Shown here piece after piece: positions 2,736 to 64,000 of a stretch of DNA of 64,000 bases. The position numbers and the translations under genes were made by a program. The stretch spans positions 29,054 through 93,053 of the forward strand of contig QAXH01006692.1 in the NCBI GenBank assembly GCA_004335635.1. Direction: 5' to 3'. The DNA comes from Chloromonas sp. AAM2. Its lineage: Eukaryota; Chlorophyta; Chlorophyceae; Chlamydomonadales; Chlamydomonadaceae. The notes below the pieces were generated by a model. That model was not told the DNA's origin and made no database searches. It saw only the letters and a list, made by a program, of their open reading frames with translations. Within the stretch, counting starts at the first letter, position 1. Each line of letters opens with the position of its first letter.

Positions 2736-5700
2736 CTACTCCTCTTCACTCTCCTCCTCGCTGCCCCCCATGTCGATATCAGGAAGCGACCCTTCGGAAT
2801 CACTGCTGCTGTCGGCGCCAAACACAGGCGGCACGACGGCAGCCGCTGTAGCTGCTACAGCTGGAGGGACGGCGGTAGGCATGGCTGTGGCTGGTGCAGC
2901 AGGACCTGACGCCTCAAACCTCATTACGGGCTGTACTTCTTCAGCCGTGCCCATTTCCATCCCAGCACCAGTAGCAGCTACAGTGGCTGCAGCAGCACCT
3001 GCCCCCATTCTCGCACTTCTAGCCACTGTACCAGCTACAGTTTTGCCTGCTGCTTCCGGCGCAGAAACCAGTGATGCAGATGGTTCTTTCTGTGCTTTCT
3101 GAGGCCGTGCTTTTGAGCTGGAAACAGCCGCATGTGCATTGTGTATCTGTGCAGCGGTCAACTCTGCGGTATGAACGGCTGCCACCGGATCCTGGGGCAA
3201 ATGACCCGGTCTTGACTCTTCGGTAGCAGGTGGTGGTGCGGCACTGGGTTGGCCTGCCCGGAGTGATGACCACAGTTGTGGGCAAGGCAAAGGTGCCACC
3301 TCGCTCATACCTGCACACGTCATGGGGCATGCAGACACACTCAAGATTAGGACAGAGCGAACAGCAAGATATGCCTGATGAATCCCATCTGCCTGTGCGT
3401 CAAGCTAGCTTGCTTGAGGAGACACACTCGAGGAGGCACATGAGGCATGTGGTAGGCATGAAAGCACCTAGTACACATGAAGCACATGGGGGCATGTGGT
3501 GCACGTGAAGGCCATGGAGGTGCTGCACGTGGTAGGTATGCAGGCACATAGTGTCACGGCAAGCATGGAAGCACATGCGGCATGTGATGGGCACACGGCA
3601 ACATCAGGACAGCGCCTCCGGTGATGCCCAAATACCTCAACTTGATCATGTTCAAAGGACAGTTGGCGGGACATGTCCGGACGCATAGCCCATGCTTACC
3701 TGCATACGCATGTCTGACCCCAGTGATGGGTGTGGCGCGTGGGTGCAGCAGAGCCTCCAGGCTAGCCATGGCAGCACGGCTCACGTCTGCCACGGAGGCA
3801 GAGCGACTGGCGGCGCCCTGGCAGAACAACTGAACAGACTGCAGAGGCAGAGGGCGAACATCAACAGGCACAACGCGCTCAGGATGTTGTTGATGTTGTC
3901 CTTTAGTCCGGACAGAAGTGCTCATCAAGGGCAATGCCAGCCAATGGGCAAGTAAACACGGACCAGCCATAACCAGGCATTTCAATATAATGGACAGGTG
4001 AGCACGTGTTGAACGCGGACGTGCGAATGCCATGAAATGGTGGTCGTTCTGGATGAAGAATACCAGGCAAAACACTGTCAGGATCTGCAAATGAGTGGTT
4101 TGTGGCAGCATGGCATGAGATGTGAATGCCATGGAAAGATGACAATCATAGAGCGGCATGACTCACTTATAGATGGGCGCACCTGTGATAAGTAAGGAGG
4201 CCTTGTGTCCAAGGGTGTGACCAGTGTAACCAGGAGTGTGCGCAACGCCTGCGCCCTCAGCCCTTCCAACCCCGCTGCATGAAGTGCTGTCACTGATGCC
4301 GGCTCATGCGCTGCCCTTACCGCTGCCTCGCCTGCCGTTGTCGCCATGTGGTATGCAAGGGTATCAGCCGAGGCACGAACAGCCGCAGGCAGCAGCGGCC
4401 CTGCGGCACCCACCACTGCAGCCACCAGCTGCAGCGCAGCCTGTGCGGCCGCTGCCGCTCCGCTACCAGCTGCAAAGCATCCAGCCGGTCCGGCAGCGGC
4501 TGCAGCAGCTGCTGCCATCGCTCCCGCACCGGCCGCCGCCTCGGTCGCCTCTGTAAGCTTCGCTTTCTTCGACATTGTCTTGCCTGCACCCGCCGGCCCG
4601 TTCATTAGCGTTCCAGCGCCGCCCGCATTTCCTGTGCCTAGCGCTGCAGCAGCTGCAGTGGTGCCTTCCGGTGTCCAACCATAGAGCTCCACCGTCACTG
4701 CCCCGAGAGCATCAACCGCAATGGTCCGGGCGATGTACGTCCCGCCACACGGCGTCCCGCAGGACGTACTTGCAAGGCGGTGAAGTGAAGTGCGGCCGGC
4801 CGAGCCGACTGCGGCCGCTGCCCCCGGCCCAAGCGCCCGCAACCGCCGCAACTGCTCTGCCAACAGCCGGCCGAGTGCAGCGTGCAGCGGTAGCATAGCT
4901 GGCCCGGCGGCAACTACCAGCGTGCTGAGTAGGTCGCAGGCACGGGCCTGGAGCGAAGGGAGAGCGGCTTGGAGTTGTTGGAAACCGCCTGTGGATGGCG
5001 GGACGCGACCTGTGGCTAGCACTTGAGCGGCGGAGAACCGGAGAAGACGGGATGCCAGATGCATTACAGGGCCGCTGCGGGCAAACAAATATCACACATA
5101 GTATCATGGTTGGTTTACAAAGTTCTTGATTGAATGAGCTTTCATTTGAGATGTGAGACTCCTCGTGTGCTAGTGATATTCTTTTATGATTGGTTCGCTC
5201 GCTGCTCGTCACTGAGCAGTACAGCTAAAGGGAAAATATGTAACGGGCGAGGTTGCATGTCCACACGGAAAAACGCACCTTGGCACTGCAATGGTTTCAT
5301 TTGAGATGCGAGTACCCTGAGATGTGGGACACATCCCTTAAGCGCATGAAATCTTTAAGTGAAGGAAAATGAGACTCCTCGTGTGCTGGTGATATCTGCA
5401 AGTCCCATTTTGATCAGTTTTCGGTGGTTATCCCACAGCCCATGCAGTCTCTTAGCGCACCAAGGCAGAGGCACAGGAGAGGGATATGCGCCAGTCGAGA
5501 GATGCTGTGCCGCCTCCATGCCTGCATGCGCCACTTCTGCCAGCAGCTTCACCGTAGCTCCCTGCACTCGCCGCTGTGCATTTCCGCCCGCTTCCACACC
5601 TCCCATCAACCCCGACAAAACTAGCAACGCGCCAGAGGTAGTTGTGTCTGCCTGTGATGCCTGTTGCTGGCTACTGACAGTGAGCCGGGCACGGCATGCA

Positions 5701-7167
5701 GATGCAGCAGCTTGATCATCCAGCCCCATCAGCATCACATCCAACACATCATGTACAGATAGCAGTAAGCGACGGTACAGCTCACTGTACGTTACTGCAT
5801 CGCCCTGTATGCGAGGTAGTGCTGCGAGGCAAGCGGCAGCTGCTGACCGGCCGCGGGGTGAACCAGCAGGGGCAACCATGGCGGCTGCTATGGCGGTTTC
5901 TAAAACAGCTGCATGGTTTCGGAGGCTAGCTGGAGCTACGTCGATAAGACGCGTGATGAGTTGCAGTGCTGCAATGGCTGGGGCGGCCCATGCTTGGCCT
6001 TGGAGAGAGATGAGGGGAAGGGCAAGGCCACAGGCTCGGGACGCTAGGGCGGATGCTTCCCGCCTCACGCCTCCCACTTCCATCACATCACCCAACCTGT
6101 ACAGCAACAAGTCCAGCACTGCACTTGAACAACGCAACAGGTCAAGCGATGCATGAACTTCATGATCTCTCAAGCCAGGCTGGCGGCATGTCAGGCACAA
6201 CCGAACAACATGGAATTGCGCCTGCTAGCGCAGCCTCTGTTGAGCAGGGCCAGGATTGGGTTTGGTCTAACCCATGTCACTGCATTGCTTGTCATTGCAC
6301 TGCTTGTCACTGTCCAGCGCGTCCTGGCTGTTGCACAACGCACATGATCTCGTTCTGTCCACAGTAATCACGTTGAAATTGGCATTCGCCTACTTTCACA
6401 AAGGCTTGGTCGCTCTTGTTGTGCATCCGGTCTGACAAACCCACCTTGTGAAAATATGAGCAGCTGCACTGCACGTAGTCTGGAATGCATTGGCCAGTAG
6501 CAGCGCTGCTGATGATCTGGCCACGCCCTGCTGCTCTTGAGCTAGAGCATGCGGCCGCTTACGCTGCTGCTGCTGCTGAGTTCCTTGCTGCTGGCTACTA
6601 GCTGGTTCCTCTAGCCGCTGCAGCATTCCATCCCGCTGCTGCTTGAGAAGGTCGAGCAGAAGGCCCAGCCACTGTTGATAGCCGAGCAGCAGCCTGGGCA
6701 TGTCGCATGCAGTCGCGCTAGCTGCTAGCAGCCGAGTGAGCTGGATCTGCTGCACAATCTGCAGGCCAGCATGCAATCATCATCTGCGTTGCGTCCATAC
6801 CTCAGTTTGACACTGGTTTGATGTCTGTCAGAAACTCAGGTGCATGCATTGGTTGAGGTGGGGTGGATGCAGCCGTACATGCATGACAGAAGATGCAACC
6901 TCTTGATACAGTCAACTTGCGCACCTGGTCTGTCTGCTGCAGAGCCTTCACCAGAGCATTGAACCATGTGTCCACTGCCTGTCCAGCCTCCCGTCGGCGG
7001 CTACTGCTGGCGGGCTGCAACGGCGCCTCCGACACCAATCGCGAGGCGACAAGCACCTTGCACATCTCAGTAGTGCGTGTGCTAGACAGCTGGTGCAGGG
7101 CTTCATTTACTGTGGAGGCGAAGCCCCGCAGCTGGGAAGCCCTGACAAGCGCAACCCCGTCCATCAT
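2736..7167 (-). CDS. RIX1/PELP1-like pre-rRNA processing protein
   Basis: Predicted nucleolar scaffold of the Rix1/PELP1 complex, which acts in ITS2 processing and release of the pre-60S ribosomal particle. Six exons join in phase on the minus strand: 7167-6925, 6758-6445, 6168-5461, 5074-4183, 3877-3700, 3310-2736, giving 969 residues. The N-terminal half is helical and repeat-like, with a stretch containing AAACLAALPRIQGD followed by YSELYRRLLLSVHDVLDVML, which resembles the RIX1 domain. The C-terminus is an acidic tail, DSSSDSEGSLPDIDMGGSEE, like the acidic LPDI-type tails of PELP1/RIX1 proteins. A long Ala/Gly/Thr-rich linker precedes it. The acceptor at 3878 has a weak pyrimidine tract, so exon 5's start could move. 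The start at 7167 is the first in-frame ATG; a second follows immediately at 7164. Identity rests on recall of family pattern, not on a search. Confidence 0.72.
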
Positions 7168-26629: not shown

Positions 26630-29600
26630 TTCAACTACCAAATTGCATTACGGATGAGGGCATTTCTCGCTCTTTCCCTGAAACACGACAGAAGCTGACA
26701 ACTCAGGCGAGAGTGCAAGTGATCAACCCGCTGACAGCACAGGCGATAGTGCAAGTGATCAACCGCTACAAGTTGAGCAATGAACGCACTCAGGCGTGTG
26801 CGAGTGGCCTAGGACTGTCCAAAACCGTACACAAGCGCAGGTCTGCAGTCAGATGCATGCAGGTAGCCTGATAGCACCATGCAACCTACAAGAAGCCCTG
26901 GTTTCCCTAAGACTCTACTGCCTTGTCTGCTTTGTCTACAGCATCGCACGCTGCGGTAGGCTGAGGCAAAAGCCTTGCGGCGATGGTGTTCTCTCACCTT
27001 ACTGTTATCAGGCACCCAAGTACTGGCTGCAGCCTGCTGCTGCTGTTGCAGGTGCTGCTGCTGGCAGGCCACCCGCCGCTGGTGCTGGCTGTAGGCACGG
27101 GTGTCCTGGTAGCGAACGCACGCACTGCAAGACAGCAGCAACAAGCAGAGGGCCAGTTCTGTTAGCACTAACGGCTGAGGCATCATGCGCTCATTGGATC
27201 GTTGGATGGCGTTTGCAAGTTTGCCAGGAGCTGAAGCATCACTTTATCCCTCTTAATCAGAATGCACAAGGCCAATGCACAAAGCAGATCCCCAGTACGC
27301 AGAGAAGTGGGGCAAACAGTTGAACTGAACAGTAACGCTTCTACCGAGCTGTTGCAAGACTGGAGAATGTAGCAACAACACCAACATCAATATAAGAAAA
27401 GACCCAGTCTTAAGCCTGCACTCACTCTCTTGCCAGCTCCTGGTACGGCTGCTTCTGGTCCGCAGTCATGGTCTCCCACACCTCCGCTGCCGCCTCCTTG
27501 ACCGGCCGGCCCTGCACCAGCTGCTCCCCGTGCTCATCCCAAGTCACCATGCCGGGGTTGTTGTCCACAACCGAGCGCACAAAGCAGGAGAAGGCCGTCT
27601 TCACCACGTCAAACGGCAGCACGCTGGGGTCCAGCACTCTGCCACCGGCGGACGCCTCGTCCCCGCCCTTGCTGCCCGATGCGGTTCCGCTTGGGTTCAG
27701 CTCTGAGCCAGCACCGAGGTCCAGGTTGTGAGCTGCAGGATACATGAGGTCACTGCTGATGTTAGCATTCCCGTTCGGAGACCAGGGTTGTTCAGAACCA
27801 CCTACGACTGCATAGCCACCGTTTGAACGCAGGCGCAGCTTCTTGGGAGTGTCCTGGTGGCCACGTGGGCTATACTGGGCGACTACCGCAGCGGTTGCGT
27901 CTCCGTCCCCACCAGCACTCAGGTTGTCCAAGTCAAACGCCCCCATGTCACCGTCATGTGCACCCCCTGCAGAGCCCACCCATTCCCTGGCCATCGTCTC
28001 GAATGCGAAGTCGTCTTGGAAAGCAGTTTCCAGGGATGCTAGGTCGTCCACTTCACAGTCTCCGCTGTTGCCGGTGTTGTGGCTTCCGAGCCCCGCCCCG
28101 CTCCCGCTCCCCGCGCCGGAGTGACCCACGCCCACGCCGGCCATCATCGGCCCGCCGGCCGTGCTGGTGTCGGCGAATTGCCCGCCTGGCATCATCGTCT
28201 GCATGTTGCTGTTGTGCGTGCGGGGTAGTGGTGGGATGCCTCCTGCTTGTGGGAAGAGTTGGCTGCTTGTGCGTTGCCCGATGCCCTGCTTACGGGCCCG
28301 GTGGGGTTCGTAGATGGGTTGATGGGGGAGGACGTTTGGAGTGAGAGTGAAGCCTGGGGGGAGGGAGTGGAAGAGTTGGCCGAAGGTGGGCCCATCCATG
28401 CCAGGGATCGACATGGAGATGATGTAGTAGCTTTCGTAGACAGCAGTGATGTGTGTGGGAATCTCGCACCCAGCTTGTAAACCTGCTGGGACGAGAACGG
28501 GTGGAGACATTTGAGGGGTGCCTGAGGTACAACTGGTGGTTGGAGACGGTTGGGTGATGCATGCTGCCTTGATGCCCATGAGGTGGGGGTCAGTGCTGGG
28601 GCCTGTCATGCCACGGGCGTCGTATGCAGGGGCTGGCATCATGGTAGGCATGGGGGGCATGGAAGGCATACCCATGAGTGAGTTGGTGGCATGCAGCAGA
28701 GGTTTGAAGCCGAGGGGAATGCTGTTGTTGGTGTAAGGCGAAGCCAGGCTGGTCGAGGGTAAGAAGCTTGTCCTACTGGGGCTGCATGTCGTGCCTGCGC
28801 TGGCATCTGACTGCTTGCGCTTGCCGGATGGGCTGCCCAATGGACTGGCTGCGCTCGCCAGCATGTTGCTCATGGCTTGCTTGAAGTGGTTGATACCCAT
28901 GGCGGACGGTGATGCACGAGGCGTGCAACTCTTGGTTGCCTTGGTGCGCGAGACGGAGCGCTTGGCCGGGGAGGCGCCATGAGCACCACGTTGGTTCTGC
29001 TGCTCACTGACTGGGGGAGGTACCAGCTCGTTCACGTTGCGGTGGTAGTAAACCTGCGAGGGTTGTTCAGCATGCAAAATCAGGGTTTGGCCACTGGCGT
29101 CTTGGCGATGAAAAGCATGGCCATGCCAGCGCGGTGAACGTGCAGCAGCCATCCATACCTGCTCGTAGTGGTGGAGAACGTTGCAGTAGAGCTTGCGCAT
29201 GACGAACGACTTGTTGGTGAAGGATGCTGGGAAATTGAAAGGCTCGCAAACTGTGACGAAGAGCTTGCGTCCCATGACAATGTCGAGGCCTCCAAGCTTC
29301 GTGACCTCGACGTACAGGCGATGCACATCAATCTCCTGCCCGCCAATCTTTGGAACCTGCGACACGAAAAGCCAGGAAAAGGATGTGCGTCATGTGATGT
29401 GATGGCTGAACAAGTGTTCCCCGAGTTTCCTTGAGGTGTTGTGTGGGGTACAAGCAAAGTATTGGAAGCTGGCCGGTGTGCGGAAAACCGGACGAGATGC
29501 AAGCATGCAGATGAAATACAGGCAATGCACGATGCGAGTCGATTGCACTGCTATCACAAAGTGTTAGATTACGAACCTTGAAGGGCAGACCCAGGTACGC

Positions 29601-37687: not shown

Positions 37688-38459
37688 TTACCCATGCTGG
37701 GCCCACCGCAGCATGTCCATCAGCATGAGCACAACCTCTACATGGCCATACTCAGAAGCTTCTCTCAGTGCTGCGCCATCCCCCGCATGGACATCAGCAC
37801 CATGGTCAAGCAGCACACGCACCACCTCTGCATGGCCATTTGCAGCAGCATCTATCAGTGCTGCGCCATCCTCTGCATGGACATCAGCACCATGGTCCAG
37901 CAGCACACGCACCACCTCTGCATGGCCATTTCCAGCAGCATATCTCAATGCAAACTCATCGAGCGCATGGACATCAGCACCATGGTCCAGCAGCATATGC
38001 ACCGTCCGCGCATGGCCATGCTCAGAAGCATTCCTGAGTGCTCCATCATATCGCACATGGACATCAGCACCATGGTCCAACAGCACACACACCGCCTCTG
38101 CGCGGCCATACTCAGCAGCATCTATCAGTGCTGCGCCATCCCCCGCATGGACATCAGCACCATGGTCCAGCAGTATACGCGTCACATCTGCATGGCCATG
38201 AAGGGCAGCACGTCTCAGTGCTGCATCAGCACCAGCATGGACACCGGCACCACAACTCACAAGGACTTGGGCAGCGCCGGCCATGCCATGTCTGGCTGCA
38301 CGCAGCAACGCTGCATCCAAACCGCCATGGCGTACGGTGAGCCAGGTGGCCAACTGCTGTGTCGGCCGCTATGGCCTGGAACGCACGCAACCAACCCTTG
38401 CAAACCGGTCCTACGATGCCTGCATTGGCCATGATCTGCGCAAGGACGTTTTCCGGCAT
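37688..38459 (-). CDS. F-box-like/ankyrin-repeat protein with a frame break
   Basis: The ankyrin part (minus frame 38353-37688) has seven consecutive units of 30 residues, for example ALIDAAANGHAEVVRVLLDH then GADVHAGDG; the last unit is truncated before a stop. Another frame, from ATG 38459, begins MPENVLAQIMANAGIVGPVC and KGWLRAFQAIAAD, resembling an F-box, and runs to 38226. The two frames are offset, and would join if one shift occurred between about 38400 and 38340. No intron with GT-AG ends fits well there. It may be a frameshifted gene, an assembly indel, or two overlapping remnants. If intact it would be a substrate adaptor for ubiquitin ligases. The 90-bp repeats are very similar at DNA level, suggesting recent expansion or conversion. 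Confidence 0.6.
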
Positions 38460-41904: not shown

Positions 41905-52843
<10,939 letters not shown>

Positions 52844-53527: not shown

Positions 53528-56500
53528 TCATTTCGCTGCAGCAGCAGCAGGAGCAGCAGAAGCAGAAGCAGCCGGAATGGCTACAGGCCTGAAACCAGCC
53601 TTCTCTGCATCCTTTTCATTGCAAAAGTAAGCCTCTCCTTTCTCCGGCTCCACCAACACCTGTGTGTAGTTAGAACCACCTGCAGGCAGTGATGAACACA
53701 CTCGTGCTTCATCATCACGTCACAAGCTGTACAGGTCGCCTGACTGCTGCAATGCTTTGGCGTCCATTGGTCATAATGTGCATTGACGATCAACCATTGA
53801 CTGTTTTCCGTGCTGGACGTTGCCTGGTTCTGTTGACCGTCAATGGACCTGCACTCTGCCACCCTCAAATAGCCCACAGGCCCTTCTTCGCTCGCCACAC
53901 ACCTGGCATATGGTAGATCTTGACGCCCTTGCTGTTGATGTTCCCCTTGATGGGCAGCACACCCTTGCCACAGACCTCAGGCAGCGCCTGGGCCACGCTA
54001 GCGGCTGGTGTGCGACCGGTTGGGGGTGCCGGGGGCGCTGAGAAGGGTGTGGGCATGATAGGCGGCAGAGGTGGGTTGGGGACGCCAGCCTTCTGGTCCT
54101 TGCGCCACTGCAGGTAGCACAACCGGCACAGCGCAACTTTGTCTGCTGAGAAGCCATAGCCGTATGCAGGAGGCACATGTACTGGTGCAGCCATTGGGCA
54201 TTGGATTTGGTGGCTTGTACATTCTGCAAGCTGTCCAGCATACACGAACTTGTCAGGAGCACGTCGGGGCAACACACGTCAGGCCAGGCATACACATGTT
54301 GGATCACACACGAGTTTGCTGCAGGGGGCCTGAGACTGTTTGTTCATGTTTTTGTTGGGATCTGATTGTGTCTTGTGCGCCGGTGTAAACTGCTGTCATA
54401 TAATACAGGGGCAGGCATATGCAACGTAATACCTGAGCTGGGTACTCAGGGATGGCATGCATAAACATGCAAAGTATTTGGCAAAGAGTTCTTCGAAGTT
54501 CCTACGCGTTGAGTCTCTATCTCTACCATCTACAGGCACAGCAGTCATACCTGAGCTGGGTACGTGAAGGTGCCCGCCCAGATGCCCTTGCGCGCCGCCT
54601 TGGCCGCGTCCTCCGCAGGGATGTAATCCTTGCCATACTCCCTGCAAGGGCATCGCACATCAGTGCAACCTCGCTACAGTCACAAGACACACAGTGACAA
54701 TTCAATGCAGAACATCTAGTGCGAAATGCCAAGGCGCTTGCGTCAGATGCATGGGGCATGGAGCACATGCCTGTTTGCCTAACAATCTGCTGCAGTATGA
54801 ATCGATGAGTAGTGCACCTTGTTGTGTTTGCCTGTGCCGCCTGGCGGCATCAGCACACCTATACCTGATCAGTCGGTGCATCAGAAGACTGTTGTACTGC
54901 ATTGGGCTGTTGCACCCCACTGTTGTACTGCCTTGGGCTGTTGTACTACACTGTTGCTCTCACCTGTACGCTACTGCTAAGCCGTTGTCCACCAGCCACT
55001 GGTTGAGGTCCTGCGAGCCCATGATGGACTCCAGGCTGCACACCGCCACAACCCGCCCGTACTGATCACGGTTTCGAGCCTTGCAGGTGACAGTCTGTGC
55101 AGGACAGCACCTCATCATGATAGTCACCTGACGATTGACCCGATGTAGATGCTATTCCTGATCATATGCCTTGTATGACAGTCAGGGATCGACAATGACT
55201 TTTCGTCTCACACCATTCTGAATCCTCGGGCACGGCTCTTTGCATTGCATCGGGATTTCAAATTATCATCATTGAATGGCATGCAAGAACTACCGGGAAC
55301 ACCGAAGAACTATGAATTATGAACTACGGGCTGGTTTATATCAGAAATTGATTGGATTGTCGAACTATGATGACACTTTCAACCACGTTTGCTGAGGTGG
55401 CACAGGGTGCAAGCCTTCACAATGACATGCATCGGGAGATCCGCTGGAGGTGCCGCGGAACATCAGGTGAAAGCGGTGCCGAGTGCATCTGCACCACACC
55501 ACTGCCATGAATGCAAGCCTTGAGATCACAGGAACGTCCCGGTGGCTGGATCACTGCCAAGGTGCCAAGAATTGTTTTTGGCCAGGAGCATGGGAGCGGT
55601 TCAACAAGTGTACTGCCAACATGCTTCCCATCCTGGACAACATGGATGGTTTTTTCCCCCCTAAAATTTCATACCACCCTGGCCACCCTGGAGCCACACA
55701 ACACACAAGCAACAAGCAGGTGCAAAGGCAAACAAAACACAAACGTCTAGGCGTGCCAGCAGCGGCAAAAAACAAAAAACGCCGGAAAAGTTTTCCCCTT
55801 CCTGGACAACATGGATATCTGGACCACGTGGCTTACCTGGTTGCCAACCTTCTGTGATAGGGCATCCTTGGATACCAGCCCGCAAGCATAAGGAGCACCC
55901 TGCACAAAACGACAGTCGATCCACCGCCTGTGATTTCTACTGTTCATGGACACTGTGTGATGTGAATGTTAGCCTGCGTTCTGCGTTCCTCTGTTCTTCC
56001 TCTTCCCCGGAGGACGTTGTTCGCTGGAGTTGTTTGGGCGTTGGTGAGTGCCAATCATGCCTAGCATCGAGCACCCTAAGCACGAGCCTCGCTCACTGAA
56101 ATCCCTACTACGTATGAAAGGCCCATCTGGTGCCTTGCGGGCTGTAAGTGTTTGGCGCACAAGCAATTGTAGTGGAAAAGACTCACTTGGCCGTTCATAC
56201 ACTCCTGAGCCTTTTCTGGGGCGTCCACCTGCACATGGACACATGTCCAGGAAAAGTTGGATGGAAGGAAGCCAAGAGACTTGATGTGCATTCAGGCCAG
56301 CGTCTTACAGAGGTACATGCTGAAGATGAGAATTAAGGCTCGTGTATGCTCTGGTGCTTGCACGTCCAACTTAAATTTGCACTCACGCCAAACAAGCGGA
56401 AACGTTGATCTCCAATGACCATTGTGTCTCCATCAACCACTCTGGCTGGCCCAACCCAAGTGTCTTGCTGAGCCAGCGCCGGGGCGGGTTGTAGAAAGAG

Positions 56501-56767
56501 AAGGGCTGCCAACATCAGTGTAGGCAGCATGGGCATCATGGGTTTTAAAGTTGAGATGGGTGGATCTGGTTGGCAAGCAGGTACTGAGGTGTCTCGCGCC
56601 TCAACATGTGCGCCTTGCTGGTTTCTGATGTGTATGGCAATGTGCTGGTTGTTGAAGGCTTGCACAGCCACAGGGCGAGTGGGTGTTACATGGCAGAAAG
56701 AGCGGAGGGTAGGGTACGACTGAATGTGCAGCTTTGCATGGCGTGCTGTGCAGGGTTGGAATTGCAT
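53528..56767 (-). CDS. Secreted/lumenal thermonuclease (SNase-like) with bacterial-type C-terminal domain
   Basis: Predicted calcium-dependent nuclease of the staphylococcal nuclease family. Seven exons join in phase: 56767-56387, 56228-56187, 55899-55837, 55094-54964, 54641-54551, 54107-53903, 53679-53528, giving 354 residues. About 80 N-terminal residues precede a hydrophobic stretch PTLMLAALLFLQPAPALAQQ with an ALA-QQ cleavage-like site: a bipartite, thylakoid-lumen-style signal, though secretion is possible if translation starts later. The SNase core reads ARVVDGDTMVIGDQRFRLFG and, across the splice, VDAPEKAQECMNGQ, then TCKARNRDQYGRVVAVC, QDLNQWLVDNGLAVAYREYG and ARKGIWAGTF. The conserved Arg and Asp/Glu positions are present. 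After a Pro-rich linker the C-terminus has PIKGNINSKGVKIYHMPGGS and GEAYFCNEKDAEKAGFR, the small domain usual in bacterial thermonucleases, suggesting bacterial ancestry. It ends in an Ala-rich tail. Confidence 0.88.
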
Positions 56768-57369
56768 CGCCAATCACTCGAACCCAGCAGTTCGCATGCA
56801 AGAGAAATTCAGCCACAAATGCGACCACGAAGCGTATCGACACTCGCTTTCAGTCATCCTTCACGCATACTGGAAAAGCGTTTTTCCGTTCTGGGGCGGA
56901 TGTGGCCTGCCTACCCTTTCCATTTAGCACATACTCCGTTTACAAGCGCTCACACGCACGAACACCTAAACTTGAAAGACGAGCCATAATCCCCAAGTCA
57001 GCTCCTGGTAGTAACCTGACAGTAAGCCGATGGCCTTTGGCTTGTTCAAGGTCCTGTCGTCGCCCTCCTTGCCAGCACTGCGGGGACCAATCGCTCAGCA
57101 ATTAGCTAGAGGATCTTTCGACATGGGCGTGCCCAGGTGAGGCCTGCCGATGACAAAGAGGTTATTACCAGGCCAGCTCCGCTAAAGGTCCGTAAAGGTT
57201 TTGTCATCGGAATCGCGTGGCAGGAGCTAATGGTGAAACGCTTCACAAGCGAGAGCACGGCGACTGCATTGCCACAGCAGTTGGCACCTTATAATTACAA
57301 CACGCTTGCATCCCCCCCCCCACACTTATCAGCCGCTGATAGTGTCATCACAGATACACCACGACCTCG
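56768..57369. other. Divergent spacer between nuclease and unknown gene A
   Basis: No recognisable exon. A run of ten C lies at 57311-57320. Confidence 0.4.
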
Positions 57370-59252
57370 ATGTGCAGGCAATCCGACGACGCCAGACCTT
57401 GTGCAGTTCACTTGAGCACTGCGGCAACCAGCACTGGCAGCACCACCAGCCAAGGCCGCCCTGTTGCTGTTGGTAGAGAGCGGGCATCCATGCTTGCGAC
57501 ACCTCCCATCAAGCAGCTACGCTGCCTAGCCCCTTCATCCCACTTCATTTCTGGGGACCACACTGCAATGTGCGAAACGTCAGGCACATTCTCGTCAGCT
57601 CGCCGCGAAAGTGCGCCACTGTCGCGCATGGCTGTGCGCACATCACACTGTCCTCAAGGAGCAGTGCCTATTGGCGAAGCGCCGCTAGCAGCCGCATTGC
57701 AACCTCAGGTCGGCCCACCACACAGTGGAGTCCAGACAACGGGCATCCAGACAAATGGCGAGGTCCCCGCGCCAGGAGCCAGGACCCAGACTGGTGCAAC
57801 ACTTCCAGGCGCTGTTCGCGTAGCAGTGTACTGTGTCACCTGGACTGCAGACGAGTTGGTGGACCGTCTGGAAGCCGTACAAGCCGGATGTCGTTCATGG
57901 CTCCATCAAGTTCAGCTCACCCATGACTCCACCCACACCCTGGAAGAGTACGGCTTTGCTCAGGTGATTGTCGCTGCTTGGAAGTGTTTGTTGCTCTTCT
58001 TCGCTGTGTCGTGCTTGTTGTTCTGACTCTGTATACCATCTGATGCACCAGCAGTCCCCTGCCTGTTCATGCCTCATGACAGCCTGCACCATGTTGCTGC
58101 TTGCACACCCCTGTAGCTTTTGCGCCATCTCTGCAGCACGGCTCTTGACTGCTACGCTTCAGTGGTGCCTGCACAGGTTGTGACTTTGGATGCTGCTGTG
58201 GCCGACATCCTTGGCTTCTGTGACGTTGAAGTGCTTGACAATCAGACCAAGTCGTCGCGGCTGTTGCATCGCGAAGCTCCAGGACACGCTTGGCAGCTGG
58301 TGAGTTGTATCAATTCATCAATAACTGCACTGTGTGGTCGCTGTACCTGGTTGAGGTTGTTGGCGATGCTATGGAGGGGTGTGGCAAACAGTAACTATGG
58401 CTTGGCAGGGGCTGAACACTAGGATTAACAAGAGGAGCTGCGCACCTACCCACAGACAACTGTGAAGCCCAGTAAATAACGCTGATCAACTGTCAACAGT
58501 ACCAATAGTTTGAAGACACGCGTGAATGCAGCGCGCCACTTCTTTAGGGTCTTGCATACAACTTTCCTGAACACGTTGGGTCTGAAAAAGGTGTGAAAAA
58601 CATGCCCCACACCCAGGGCGGTGACGCATGAAAGAGCAAGTGGTGTTCATTATCGATAAACCTTCTACCCTTGCCTTGTTGAAACATGGCCTTGGAATAG
58701 CTTTTGACCTGAGTGCTCTAACCTGCATCAATGTCACAGTTTACTGAATCATATCTTCAAAATTGTGCGCAGGTTGGTGCAAGGGCTTTGGACGTGCAGG
58801 ACATGGAGCTGTTGCAGACATGCGACCTTCCAGAGGCCAATGAACGAGCATTGCCCACCTCCGTCCTCACCTTGCCTGCCGTCTGGCGCTGGGCTTACTC
58901 AGCAGCAGCTGCCTACCTAAGGTCTCAGGCAACTGAGGAGCGGGCAGTGACGCCTTCCAGCAACAGCACTCCTCAGCAGGTACCAACTGCCACATGGGAT
59001 CAGTTAGAAGAAGCGCTAGCGGCTGCATGCTGCAGTGCGTGCCGACAAGATCTGGACAGCACAGTGGGTGCAGGAGCACGTGGCCACAGAGACGTTTCCT
59101 TGCCTGACAGTCGGTTAGCCGCGCTTCAGGTATTGTTGCGGGCATCGCCCAAGCTCCGCTCAGCAGTAAAGCCAAGTGCTAGCTTCACAGCATCTATGAG
59201 GCGGAATTCTTCAGTAGGCTTGTTGCACCGGCCACAGATGGTGCCTGTCTAA
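57370..59252 (+). CDS. Unknown-family protein, tandem copy A
   Basis: Not recognised. Three exons join in phase: 57370-57963, 58177-58299, 58773-59252, giving 398 residues from the first in-frame ATG. The N-terminal half is low complexity. The conserved core starts at VAVYCVTWTADELVDRLEAV, continues WLHQVQLTHDSTHTLEEYGF, and crosses into exon 2, VVTLDAAVADILGFCDVEVL and NQTKSSRLLHREAPGHAWQL. Exon 3 holds LPAVWRWAYSAAAAYLRSQA, TWDQLEEALAAACC and SLPDSRLAALQVLLRASPKL. The downstream copy B matches core, exon sizes (123 bp for the middle exon in both) and intron phases. The start is uncertain because no homologue of copy B's upstream zinc-finger-like segment is seen here. Confidence 0.65.
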
Positions 59253-60587
59253 AGCCACAGATGGTGTGTGGCCACAGTTGGTGCCTGTCTAGAGAGGGGG
59301 CACTTGACTAGGGTTGCTGCAATGGGTTGATGCTTTTCTAGCGGCCAAATGATCCTATAGGCTAGCCAGCTGCCACCGGGATTTGGAAGAACCGACAATA
59401 GCTTGAATACAGCATATAGTTGAACTTTCCGTTGTGCTGTTGGGCACCCAGGTGACATGTGGTGGTTGCAACAAGGGTTTGTGTGCCATAAACAGCGTAC
59501 TGCCAACTTGAGCGATTTTTGTGATGCATCAACGCATGCATTTACTGAGCTGGCTTCTTGTCCTATTATGAGGTGTATGCGGACAACTGGCCCCTAGGGC
59601 ACCATATGTATATATTTAAGGAATTGAAAGTTAGTACGTCAACGATGTTTGTGTGTTCAACAGGGCAAGAAATTATCTTGTGATTTTCATTTTATGTTGT
59701 TGGGTCAACTGTCTGATACTGCATTGCCTCTTGTGTTCGTGGGCAGGAGAGGAATGAATGATACTTTTTCTAGGGCGTGGCGTGGCTGTGGCATGCTGCC
59801 CAGCAACTTGTTGCTCATTGTTTGTACCAAAACTAATGGATCGGCAGGGGTCTGAGCTGAAAAGCGCCCACATGCCATGTCTGTATTAACATCACTTGGT
59901 TGTCCCGGAAGAGAGCCTTCCTTTTTGTGTGGACTTGGTTATGCTGCTGTTGCGGCCCACTGTAAGACGTGGCTGAGAGCTTGATATAAAGTGAGACCAA
60001 TGTAACAACCCAGCCAACCAGTGGTTGGAGAACATCAGCTTGGAGACAGAGACATATTAAGGCAGCCACGGATGTCCAACTGGCGAATGCACCCAGGCCA
60101 CATTCCACACTTCAAGTTGTTGCAGCTCCTCAGCCATCAGTGTGTGCGTTCAAGTGGTCTCCTGAGCTTACTGCATAGATCAAAGTGCAAGTATCTGAAT
60201 TCATGCGAACGTGCGCACATGGCGCAGCTAACCTGGCATGACAGGTGCTGATGCGGCCAGTATGGCAGTGGCATATGAACAGCAACTTTTAGCCTCCTAA
60301 CAACTCCTTATCCGTTCTTCATCTTGTTCCGCCGCCCACCATCAATGTACCTTGGACACGATGCGCGAAGTTTTGCGTGCTCTGTTGAGACTTCTCTGTG
60401 GAGGGAGCCTATGCTCGTTACTGGAGCCGTACTACGGTTGCGTAACCCGGCGGCACGGTTGAGGTTGTCATCAGGCTGTGCTTGCATCGCAGAAGTGATG
60501 AGCATCTGTGCCGCTCCTTGCTCAGGCCACAAGACACTGCCATAGGTATCACTGTATCCAATCACAAGCAGCATCCAGCAGCTGCAG
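59253..60587. other. Spacer between tandem copies
   Basis: No coding exon is seen. The sequence 59230-59290 contains a short doubled GGCCACAGATGGTG/GCCTGTCTA word. Confidence 0.45.
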
Positions 60588-60856
60588 GTCAGTGTTGGTT
60601 TCAGACAAGCCTTGCCGGCTGCCCTGCTTTTGGCTCAGAATGCCGTTATGCGCATAAACTGCCCGCGCCTTCGCGACCTTGTTTTCTGCGCGCAAATCGC
60701 GCGCAAGTCCAGCGGACGGGACTTGTCGCCGCATTCAATGGCCAGATGTCCGCAAATGCTCTGCGTAGAAACGTTGGAAGAGTGAGGATGCCTCTGCCAG
60801 CACACTGCCAGGAACTTGTCATTCAATGCAAGGGCCAGCTACAGCTGTGGGCCTAA
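60588..60856 (+). CDS. Possible CCCH zinc-finger exon upstream of copy B
   Basis: After an acceptor (CAGCAGCTGCAG) the frame reads QCWFQTSLAGCPAFGSECRY followed by AHK. The spacing is C-x8-C-x6-C-x3-H, within the range of CCCH RNA-binding fingers although x5 is more usual for the middle gap. The frame stops at 60856, inside the frame of copy B's first exon. A splice linking the two would need a donor between about 60680 and 60826 that I could not fix. It may instead be a separate gene end. Confidence 0.35.
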
Positions 60857-62130
60857 ATGGCTTGCAGCAAGTAAAACCAGCCGCAGATTCACTGCAATGC
60901 GCGTCGCATCACATTGCCAACCTTGCTTGCGGTTGCTTCCCCAACCAAAACATCGACACGATGTGCAAGGCACAATCAGCAGCCCCAGATGCATGCCGTT
61001 TGACGCTGCCGCATGAGAGCACCGTCGTCTACTGTGCAACCTGGAGCGCCAGCGAACTGATTGAGCACCTGGTAGCTGGCCAGGAAGCTGCATGGCTCGA
61101 TCAAATCCAGCTCACCCATGACTCCATCTACACCCTGGAAGAATACGGCTTCGCACAGGTGATGGTCGCAAGCGTCCAGGTGCCTCTGTACCGTGAGAAG
61201 ATGGGAAACGATCCCCCAGGATGCGTGTAGTACGGGATGTACATGCGTGCTGCTTCATGTCTTCAGGTTGTCTGCCTGTTGCGCAACCCTGTAGCTCTTG
61301 GGCTATCTCAACAGCACTGCTCCTGAACTGCTCCAACGGTGCCTGCACAGGTTGTGACTTTGGATGCTGCTGCGGCCGACGCCCTTGGCTTCTGTGACCT
61401 TGAAGTGCTTGAAAATCAGACCAAATCATCACGGCTGCTCCATCGTGAAGCTCCAGGACATGCTTGGCAGCTGGTGAGTCATTGGAGTCATTCACGTTTG
61501 ATGTGGGCTAAGTCCATCGTTCACGTGAGTTAGGATAAAGCTCAGCATAGGACGCCATGCTTGATGAACCAAAAGCGTTGCACAGTTAACTAGTGACGGA
61601 TCCTGTTGTGGTGCTCCGGCATCTGATTCAGAGTCATCACAAGCAACCAGTCCAGTGTTTGGATTCTGTTGCTTTTTCACCCTCAAAATTGTATTCAGCA
61701 CGACAAACTGGCCACATCATGTTCGCGCTCAGAAATGCCATGGCATGAGCGTCCATGCCACCTGTGCTGCATGCAGGTGGGCATCAGCAGCTCTGACTCC
61801 CTTGACTTCCAACCTCTGCAGACATGCGAAGTGCCTCCTGTCACCCAATCATCAGCACCAGCCCTGGCCCTTTCTGACCTCCACTTTTCACATGTCTGGC
61901 AGTGGGCGTACGCCCAGGCAAGTGCACATACTGCTGCACAAGCACTCACAGACGATTCACCGCCACCCTCTCCTAGGGTAGCGCAGCAGGCGCCCACTGC
62001 CATGTGGGACCTGTTAGAAGAGGCATTGGCGGCTATAGCAGTTGATGCTGAGACGCCCAGATACGTTTCAAGTCCATGTGCAGCCTTTAGTATGAAGGGC
62101 CAGGAAAAGCGTTTGCAAGCAGCAGCCTGA
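60826..62130 (+). CDS. Unknown-family protein, tandem copy B
   Basis: Paralogue of copy A. Three exons join in phase: 60826-61158, 61351-61473, 61777-62130, giving 269 residues from ATG 60826. The core is STVVYCATWSASELIEHLVA, then AWLDQIQLTHDSIYTLEEYG, VVTLDAAAADALGFCDLEVL and NQTKSSRLLHREAPGHAWQL. Exon 3 has FSHVWQWAYAQASAHTAAQ and AMWDLLEEALAAIAVDAE, aligning with copy A. After the stop at 62130 a +1 frame (to 62324) encodes SLPAGWRAMLQALLQSPPKP, which aligns with copy A's C-terminus. Copy B therefore either has a further splice near 62100-62160 or has lost its frame there. Function is unknown. Confidence 0.62.
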
Positions 62131-62324
62131 CAGCAGTGGTTGTTGGGCCAACTGATTACAGCAGTGCATCTTTACCAGCTGGCTGGCGCGCCATGCTTCA
62201 GGCACTGCTGCAATCTCCACCCAAGCCGTGGGTTGCAACCAGTCCAGCACGAGCCATGGCAGCATTGATGGCTAATGCCTTGGAACAATCAACGGATAAT
62301 TCCTTTCCGACATTTAATCGATAA
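62131..62324 (+). pseudogene. Displaced C-terminal segment of copy B
   Basis: In the frame one base forward of exon 3, the segment SASLPAGWRAMLQALLQSPP continues to MANALEQSTDNSFPTFNR and TAA at 62322. It matches SLPDSRLAALQVLLRASPKL of copy A. It is either an unrecognised last exon (an acceptor such as GATTACAGCAG at 62155-62165 exists) or the result of a frameshift. Confidence 0.5.
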
Positions 62325-63096: not shown

Positions 63097-63742
63097 ACTT
63101 GGATCAGTGTGTAACCTCATCTCGTCTAGCCACATCAGCAGTAACAGCAATTCCAGCAGCGCAGGAATTGCCCTGCAGAGCAGGTGCCCATCATCGTCAG
63201 TTTGGACCAACCGTTTTCGTGCCGAGCCCGACTGTTGGTGTGCGTTTATTTGACGTGATTTCTGGGTCATTGCCTACCAGATCTAGCGGTCTAAGCGGCA
63301 GTAAGTGAGCGTGAAGCTTTACCATCTGATGCTAGCCTTGAGAGCCCGTCCTCACTGCGCCACAGCGTTGAACAGAGCAGGGAGAACAGATCCTGTGAAG
63401 TGGCAACCACGTTTGTCACTTGGTACGCCGGATAGCAGCCTGGTGCAATCCATCACCAGCTGGAGAACAGCAGCCAGCTGCGGCCATGATCAGCTGACGG
63501 AGAGAACGCTACAGCAGCAACTGCTCGTGCAGTACAAGCAGGCCACTGATTCCAACCTGTAAGGACACCCCGCAGAGGCTGAGCCCATACTGCGGCAACT
63601 AGTGCGGCAGCAGGCGCGTGCACTGGGCCATCAACACGCTGACACCATGAGCAGCATGGGTGAGCATGGGGCTGTGCTGGTGAGCTTAAGCAAGTTCGCA
63701 GAGGCAGTTACCGTGCTCCTGGATGTACTGCAGCTGAGGTGA
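63097..63742 (+). pseudogene. Unknown coding-like gene with in-frame stop
   Basis: Two exons join in phase: 63097-63300 (DLDQCVTSSRLATSAVTAIP onward; ends at a strong donor GCA|GTAAGTG) and 63336 onward (TLRARPHCATALNRAGRTD, then LTERTLQQQLLVQYKQATDS). The frame meets TAA at 63560-63562, then stays open in the same frame with protein-like sequence (EAEPILRQLVRQQARALGHQ, HADTMSSM, SLSKFAEAVTVLLDVLQLR) to TGA at 63740. Upstream exons are missing. It could be a gene ending at TAA, a decayed gene, or a case needing RNA evidence. No family recognised. Confidence 0.4.
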
Positions 63743-63857
63743 CGTATACAGGTCCATGAGCACCCTGTAAAGCGTCGGCATGCTGGGTCACGCCTTGGGT
63801 CAGCATGAAAATCCGCACGGTTAGCAGCAGCACACGATCAGCTGCCTGCTGCTGTGT

Positions 63858-64000
63858 CCCGTCATGGCAGCACCGCCCTCCTGCCGTGCCCCGTCATGGC
63901 AGCACCGCCCTCCTGCCGTGCCCCGTCATGGCAGCACCGCCCTCCTGCCGTGCCCCGTCATGGCAGCACCGCCCTCCTGCCGTGCCCCGTCATGGCAGCA
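63858..64000 (+). repeat. 32-bp minisatellite, about 4.5 units, continues past the edge
   Basis: Perfect copies of a unit made of CCCCGTCATGGCAGCACCGC followed by CCTCCTGCCGTG. Related, diverged units occur at 13390-13467. Confidence 0.95.

What the first reader, a model, noticed from the sequence alone, without database searches (positions are those of the whole stretch)
57370..62324. Tandem pair of genes encoding an apparently undescribed protein family
Copies A and B share a core of about 85 residues split at the same phase-0 position, with a middle exon of exactly 123 bp in both, flanked by diverged ends. The near-identical block NQTKSSRLLHREAPGHAWQL implies strong selection. I cannot place the core in any family. 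Conserved Cys (VYC, GFCD) and His (THD, LLHREAPGH) could bind metal.
Basis: partly seen in the sequence, partly recalled or inferred. Interest (0 to 1): 0.75.

Follow-up and report, generated by a model that had tools for sequence, protein, structure and literature searches.

The report
Partly homogenised pair of orphan genes
Two neighbouring genes, said to be from a green alga, seem to encode related proteins that match no family we could search; they look like real old duplicates whose middles have been kept alike, which is worth recording but not a new kind of thing.

Summary
The pair is real. Copies A (57370-59252) and B (60826-62130, possibly to 62324) share two GT-AG, phase-0 introns and a 123-bp middle exon. 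Similarity covers 178 residues at 59% identity, not only 85. Only these two copies were found in the genome. No Pfam or NCBIfam match above cut-off, no PDB match, and no protein at E<=10 in two collection searches; how well that collection covers algae is uncertain. dN/dS is about 0.34 (bootstrap 0.22-0.50), so both are probably constrained coding genes. Near-identity of the centre is not mainly selection: silent divergence is 0.22 there against 0.68 elsewhere (permutation scan 0 of 1000), and the adjoining 76 bp of intron 1 is 79% identical while other introns are at chance. This suggests gene conversion between old duplicates. One 20-residue block does show selection: seven substitutions, all silent. 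B's frame breaks near its 3' end relative to A: extra intron or truncation. Function and metal binding are untested.

The parts
57370..57963 (+). Copy A exon 1 (first in-frame ATG 57370; others at 57490 and further in; true start unknown)
   Evidence: Open frame from 57343; donor CAG|GTGATT
57964..58176 (+). Copy A intron 1, 213 bp; its last 76 bp (58101-58176) are 79% identical to the end of B's intron 1
58177..58299 (+). Copy A exon 2, 123 bp, phase 0
58300..58772 (+). Copy A intron 2, 473 bp
58362..58669 (+). Dispersed repeat inside A intron 2; 33 other match rows in the genome at E<=0.001 (lower bound; some rows are pieces of one copy)
58773..59252 (+). Copy A exon 3 to stop codon
60826..61158 (+). 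Copy B exon 1 from first in-frame ATG (true start unknown)
   Evidence: Open frame from 60769; donor CAG|GTGATG
61159..61350 (+). Copy B intron 1, 192 bp
61351..61473 (+). Copy B exon 2, 123 bp, phase 0
61474..61776 (+). Copy B intron 2, 303 bp; no other match in the genome at E<=0.01
61777..62130 (+). Copy B exon 3, open to the TGA at 62128-62130
62148..62324 (+). Stretch in another frame that resembles A's C-terminus (score 53; 0 of 2000 shuffles as high): extra intron or frame disruption in B
57896..57974 (+). Low-divergence tract, first part (pairs with 61091-61169, 89% identical)
58101..58305 (+). Low-divergence tract, second part: end of intron 1 plus exon 2 (pairs with 61279-61479)

Best explanation
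A and B are two real tandem protein-coding genes of a family that is possibly restricted to its lineage, made by an old duplication (silent sites saturated over most of the alignment). Both have been under moderate purifying selection. Their middle (end of exon 1, end of intron 1, exon 2) was later made more alike, most simply by gene conversion between the copies that left the non-homologous 5' part of intron 1 untouched. The likely product is a small, mainly helical protein with variable ends around a conserved core, acting through protein contacts rather than as a recognised enzyme. Read directly from sequence: matching open frames and splice sites, two copies, the silent-site pattern. Inferred: expression, conversion, fold. 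The function itself is a guess (about 0.2).
For: Same intron positions and phase, GT-AG, in both copies. Overall dN/dS 0.34, bootstrap 0.22-0.50, over 162 codons. NQTKSS block: 7 substitutions, 0 amino-acid changes, P 5.5e-4. pS 0.22 in 63 core codons against 0.68 in 99 others; Fisher P 1.7e-6. Third-position scan over 170 codons: 5/47 mismatches inside the best segment against 70/123 outside, 0 of 1000 permutations; limited to 97 same-residue codons, 0/21 against 31/76, reached by 10 of 2000 permutations. End of intron 1 57/72 identical against a shuffle mean of 0.53 and maximum of 0.74 in 60; the other intron parts compared are at chance. One long helix in the model of the isolated exon 1 core (pLDDT 77, pTM 0.46); helices in exon 3 at low confidence (pLDDT 42).
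Against: The 5' part of intron 1 (126 against 109 bp), inside the proposed tract, is not alignable; a simple single conversion would have homogenised it. In the first 21 codons of exon 2 all five substitutions change residues, in four codons, and none is silent, the reverse of purifying selection. Core omega alone has a wide range (0.28, bootstrap 0.11-0.78) and outside the core dS is saturated, so omega there (0.26) is uncertain. No transcripts were available, and B's frame break leaves B's integrity open.
Confidence: 0.6

Rival explanations
1. No conversion: the centre is constrained at the nucleotide level as well (splicing signals, an alternative start of exon 2 at the CCCTGTAG acceptor in intron 1, or an RNA element), which slows silent and intronic change there.
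For: The conserved intron stretch abuts the acceptor of exon 2, and A is open in frame with exon 2 from the alternative acceptor (58117 on), adding 20 residues. The unalignable 5' part of intron 1 fits this better.
Against: In B that extension holds a stop in each of the three frames and a 4-bp gap against A. Read by eye, not counted in a call, most changes in the extension would alter residues. The left edge of the tract falls inside exon 1, not at a splice site.
Confidence: 0.25
2. B is a degenerating copy: A is the working gene and B has lost its C-terminal frame.
For: B's open frame stops at 62130 while a stretch resembling A's C-terminus lies downstream in another frame; 4-bp gap in B's intron 1 end.
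Against: B keeps open frames through its three exons, both pairs of splice sites, and the 20-residue block without amino-acid change. Seventeen candidate introns of 25 bp or more would join the frames, though none has a GTGAGT or GTAAGT donor.
Confidence: 0.25
3. A known domain diverged beyond sequence recognition (for example a GST-like protein, after the single hit in the prokaryote genome collection).
For: One Ramlibacter ORF, 30% over residues 13-122 of the A core, 34.3 bits. That the ORF is GST-like is recalled, not tested.
Against: The hit was selected by an exact peptide pattern (WL[HD]Q[VI]QLT), its E-value counts candidate stretches only, copy B gives no hit, and A and B match no GST family in Pfam. 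Judged chance.
Confidence: 0.05

Closest known systems
Lineage-restricted (orphan) gene families
   Same: No recognisable relatives in the libraries searched; two copies; variable ends that do not align
   Different: Phyletic range could not be measured: no related genome is held here
Tandem duplicates homogenised by gene conversion
   Same: Silent divergence drops sharply in one tract whose alike sequence includes part of an intron; saturated elsewhere
   Different: The tract is interrupted by an unalignable intron part; no third sequence to prove the event or its direction. PMC7853309 (two passages seen, one of them in its reference list) names conversion as one possible reading for green-algal rbcS paralogues
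DUF7731 (PF24865)
   Same: Weak match to B exon 1 (E 0.017, 15.4 bits, cut-off 27; E 0.048 for whole B)
   Different: A does not match; the match lies largely in the variable N-terminal part; below cut-off

Membership tests
Any Pfam-A family | Score above the curated cut-off | tested here: not met
   A and B, the two cores and five exon pieces: nothing above cut-off
Converted tandem duplicates | Tract of reduced silent divergence between paralogues | tested here: met
   pS 0.22 against 0.68; scan 0 of 1000 permutations, 10 of 2000 with same-residue codons only
Converted tandem duplicates | Homogenisation extends to non-coding sequence within the tract | tested here: inconclusive
   Last 76 bp of intron 1 79% identical, its 5' part at chance
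Converted tandem duplicates | Paralogues group by species rather than by copy in the tract | not testable with these tools
   The genome has no relatives here
Lineage-restricted gene family | No homologue outside the lineage | tested here: inconclusive
   0 at E<=10 among 7997 and 6144 scored candidates; a neighbouring exon used as control found 3 proteins at E<=0.001 among 7998, organisms not named
GST | GST domain | tested here: not met
   No GST family among Pfam matches of A, B or the cores at E<=10; the hit concerns A only, 34.3 bits
Metal-binding protein | Ligand-spaced conserved Cys/His | not testable with these tools
   Two sequences only; two of the residues named lie in the low-divergence tract

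The most novel reading that the evidence does not exclude
A new green-algal protein family with its own fold, in which tandem copies keep a shared central module by repeated conversion across a heterologous intron segment while their ends diverge freely.
Probability: 0.15. Interest if true: 0.45.

Novelty: new member of a known kind. Interest (0 to 1): 0.27.

Why it matters
It adds a probably constrained, unannotated gene pair to a eukaryotic genome and shows a trap: near-identical peptide blocks in tandem copies can reflect homogenisation, so selection must be judged from silent sites. If the family proves widespread in green algae it would be a new domain worth a structure.

Tried and rejected
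Metal-binding reading: no test possible with two sequences. GST relation: rejected as chance. Matches to DUF7731, TRL10, Rhamno_transf, DUF2065 and PRK10316: weak and not shared by both copies, taken as noise. Antisense reading: the opposite strand is open over much of the region, but comparing the two translations by eye gives more residue changes over exon 2; rejected without a counted test. Mobile elements as the cause of the unlike introns: intergenic 59253-60825 (E<=0.001), B intron 2 and the 5' parts of both intron 1 sequences (E<=0.01) match only themselves; A intron 2 does hold a dispersed repeat. Downstream TGTAA signals: their density near the genes is about that of the whole window, so they say nothing. 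Structure: exon 3 model too poor to search, exon 1 core model a single helix; no fold search was made. Paper searches gave listings with starts of abstracts only; two passages of PMC7853309 were seen.

Full report
Observation. Copies A and B lie head to tail on the + strand. Junctions are GT-AG and phase 0 at matching places, and exon 2 is 123 bp in each. The aligned part runs from the end of exon 1 into exon 3: 178 residues each, 59% identity. The window lies in a genome of 74,379,869 bases in 2324 contigs. A finds its own three exons and B's three there (6 matches). B finds the same six places, the one over A's exon 2 running on into a stop, plus two matches at E 0.15 and 0.22 with a stop each, taken as noise (8 matches). 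That tool scores only its best candidates.

Is it known? hmmscan of A gives 0 Pfam families at E<=10, of B two below cut-off; the two cores 0 of 2; of five exon pieces 3 match nothing and 2 have weak matches below cut-off. NCBIfam: one weak match for 1 of 2 cores. PDB sequences: 0 for A and 0 for the two-sequence profile at E<=10. Protein collection: 0 at E<=10 among 7997 scored candidates for A and 6144 for the alignment. Viral contigs: 38 pattern matches, 0 relatives. Prokaryote genome contigs: 52 pattern matches, 1 relative, judged chance. As a control for the protein collection, a neighbouring exon (5355-6224; no Pfam family at E<=0.01; PELP1/RIX1-like by recall) found 3 proteins at E<=0.001, the best with 51% identity over 72% of the query, the weakest carrying PF08167. 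Their organisms are not named. So the collection holds relatives of at least this neighbour, but few, and the absence of hits for A and B is weak evidence of a narrow range.

Coding and selection. Over 162 aligned codons pS is 0.50 and pN 0.23, omega 0.34 (bootstrap 0.22-0.50); for the 63 core codons omega is 0.28 (0.11-0.78), for the other 99 it is 0.26 with silent sites near saturation. Left out before these counts: the unalignable N-terminal and C-terminal parts and eight codons between the two exon 3 segments; the 170 codons include those eight. In the core 20 substitutions give 8 amino-acid changes against 12.6 expected when placed at random (P 0.017). In the 20-codon block 7 of 7 substitutions are silent (P 5.5e-4); in the 21 codons before it all five substitutions change residues.

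Homogenisation. pS by segment: exon 1 left 0.75, exon 1 right 0.27, exon 2 0.19, exon 3 left 0.66, exon 3 right 0.64. Rounded counts give Fisher P 1.7e-6, with edges chosen after the fact; a scan with free edges gives 0 of 1000 permutations, and 10 of 2000 when only same-residue codons are used. The last 76 bp of intron 1 are 57/72 identical (shuffle mean 0.53, maximum 0.74 of 60). At chance are the 5' part of intron 1, intron 2, the stretch 5' of the core (57496-57820, which is N-terminal exon 1 in A) and the stretch after the stop. I favour conversion, with the 5' part of intron 1 as the main difficulty.

Copy B's end. B's exon 3 frame closes at 62130. A stretch up to 62324 in another frame resembles A's C-terminus (score 53; maximum of 2000 shuffles 48). 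Seventeen candidate introns between 62041 and 62178 join the frames, none with a GTGAGT or GTAAGT donor. B therefore has an extra intron or ends early.

Surroundings. A's intron 2 carries a dispersed repeat of about 308 bp with 33 other match rows at E<=0.001, a lower bound; 12 of the 33 start at the same query base. The intergenic stretch matches only itself. TGTAA, recalled as the green-algal polyadenylation signal, occurs after A at 59961 and 60001 and after B at 63110, but 6 in the last 8 kb on this strand is close to the window's average (55 in 64 kb), so it is no evidence. No tRNA and no Rfam match at gathering score in the window.

Mechanism. The models give one long helix in the isolated exon 1 core (pLDDT 77) and poorly supported helices in exon 3 (pLDDT 42); neither holds the whole core. 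A small helical contact protein is my best guess; nothing tests it.

Noticed in passing
58362-58669: Dispersed repeat in A's intron 2 with 33 other match rows in the genome (lower bound), 12 of them starting at the same query base; class not determined.
   Followed up: partly
63845-64000: 32-bp tandem repeat, 4.9 copies, running to the window end.
   Followed up: no
59230-59294: Local repeat (3 copies of 25 nt) straddling A's stop codon, so A's last residues are repeat-encoded.
   Followed up: no
53865-56773 (-): ORFs that by recalled motifs resemble a thermonuclease-like protein with a C-terminal GNI...IYHMPG motif; Pfam gave no hit at E<=0.01 for the two pieces tested.
   Followed up: partly
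27422-29389 (-): ARID domain plus a weak HMG-box match (below cut-off) in one long ORF.
   Followed up: no
37688-38368 (-): Ankyrin repeat array.
   Followed up: no
43886-44440 (-): Toprim-like piece (E 0.0021, below cut-off); gyrase/topoisomerase-like motif by recall.
   Followed up: no
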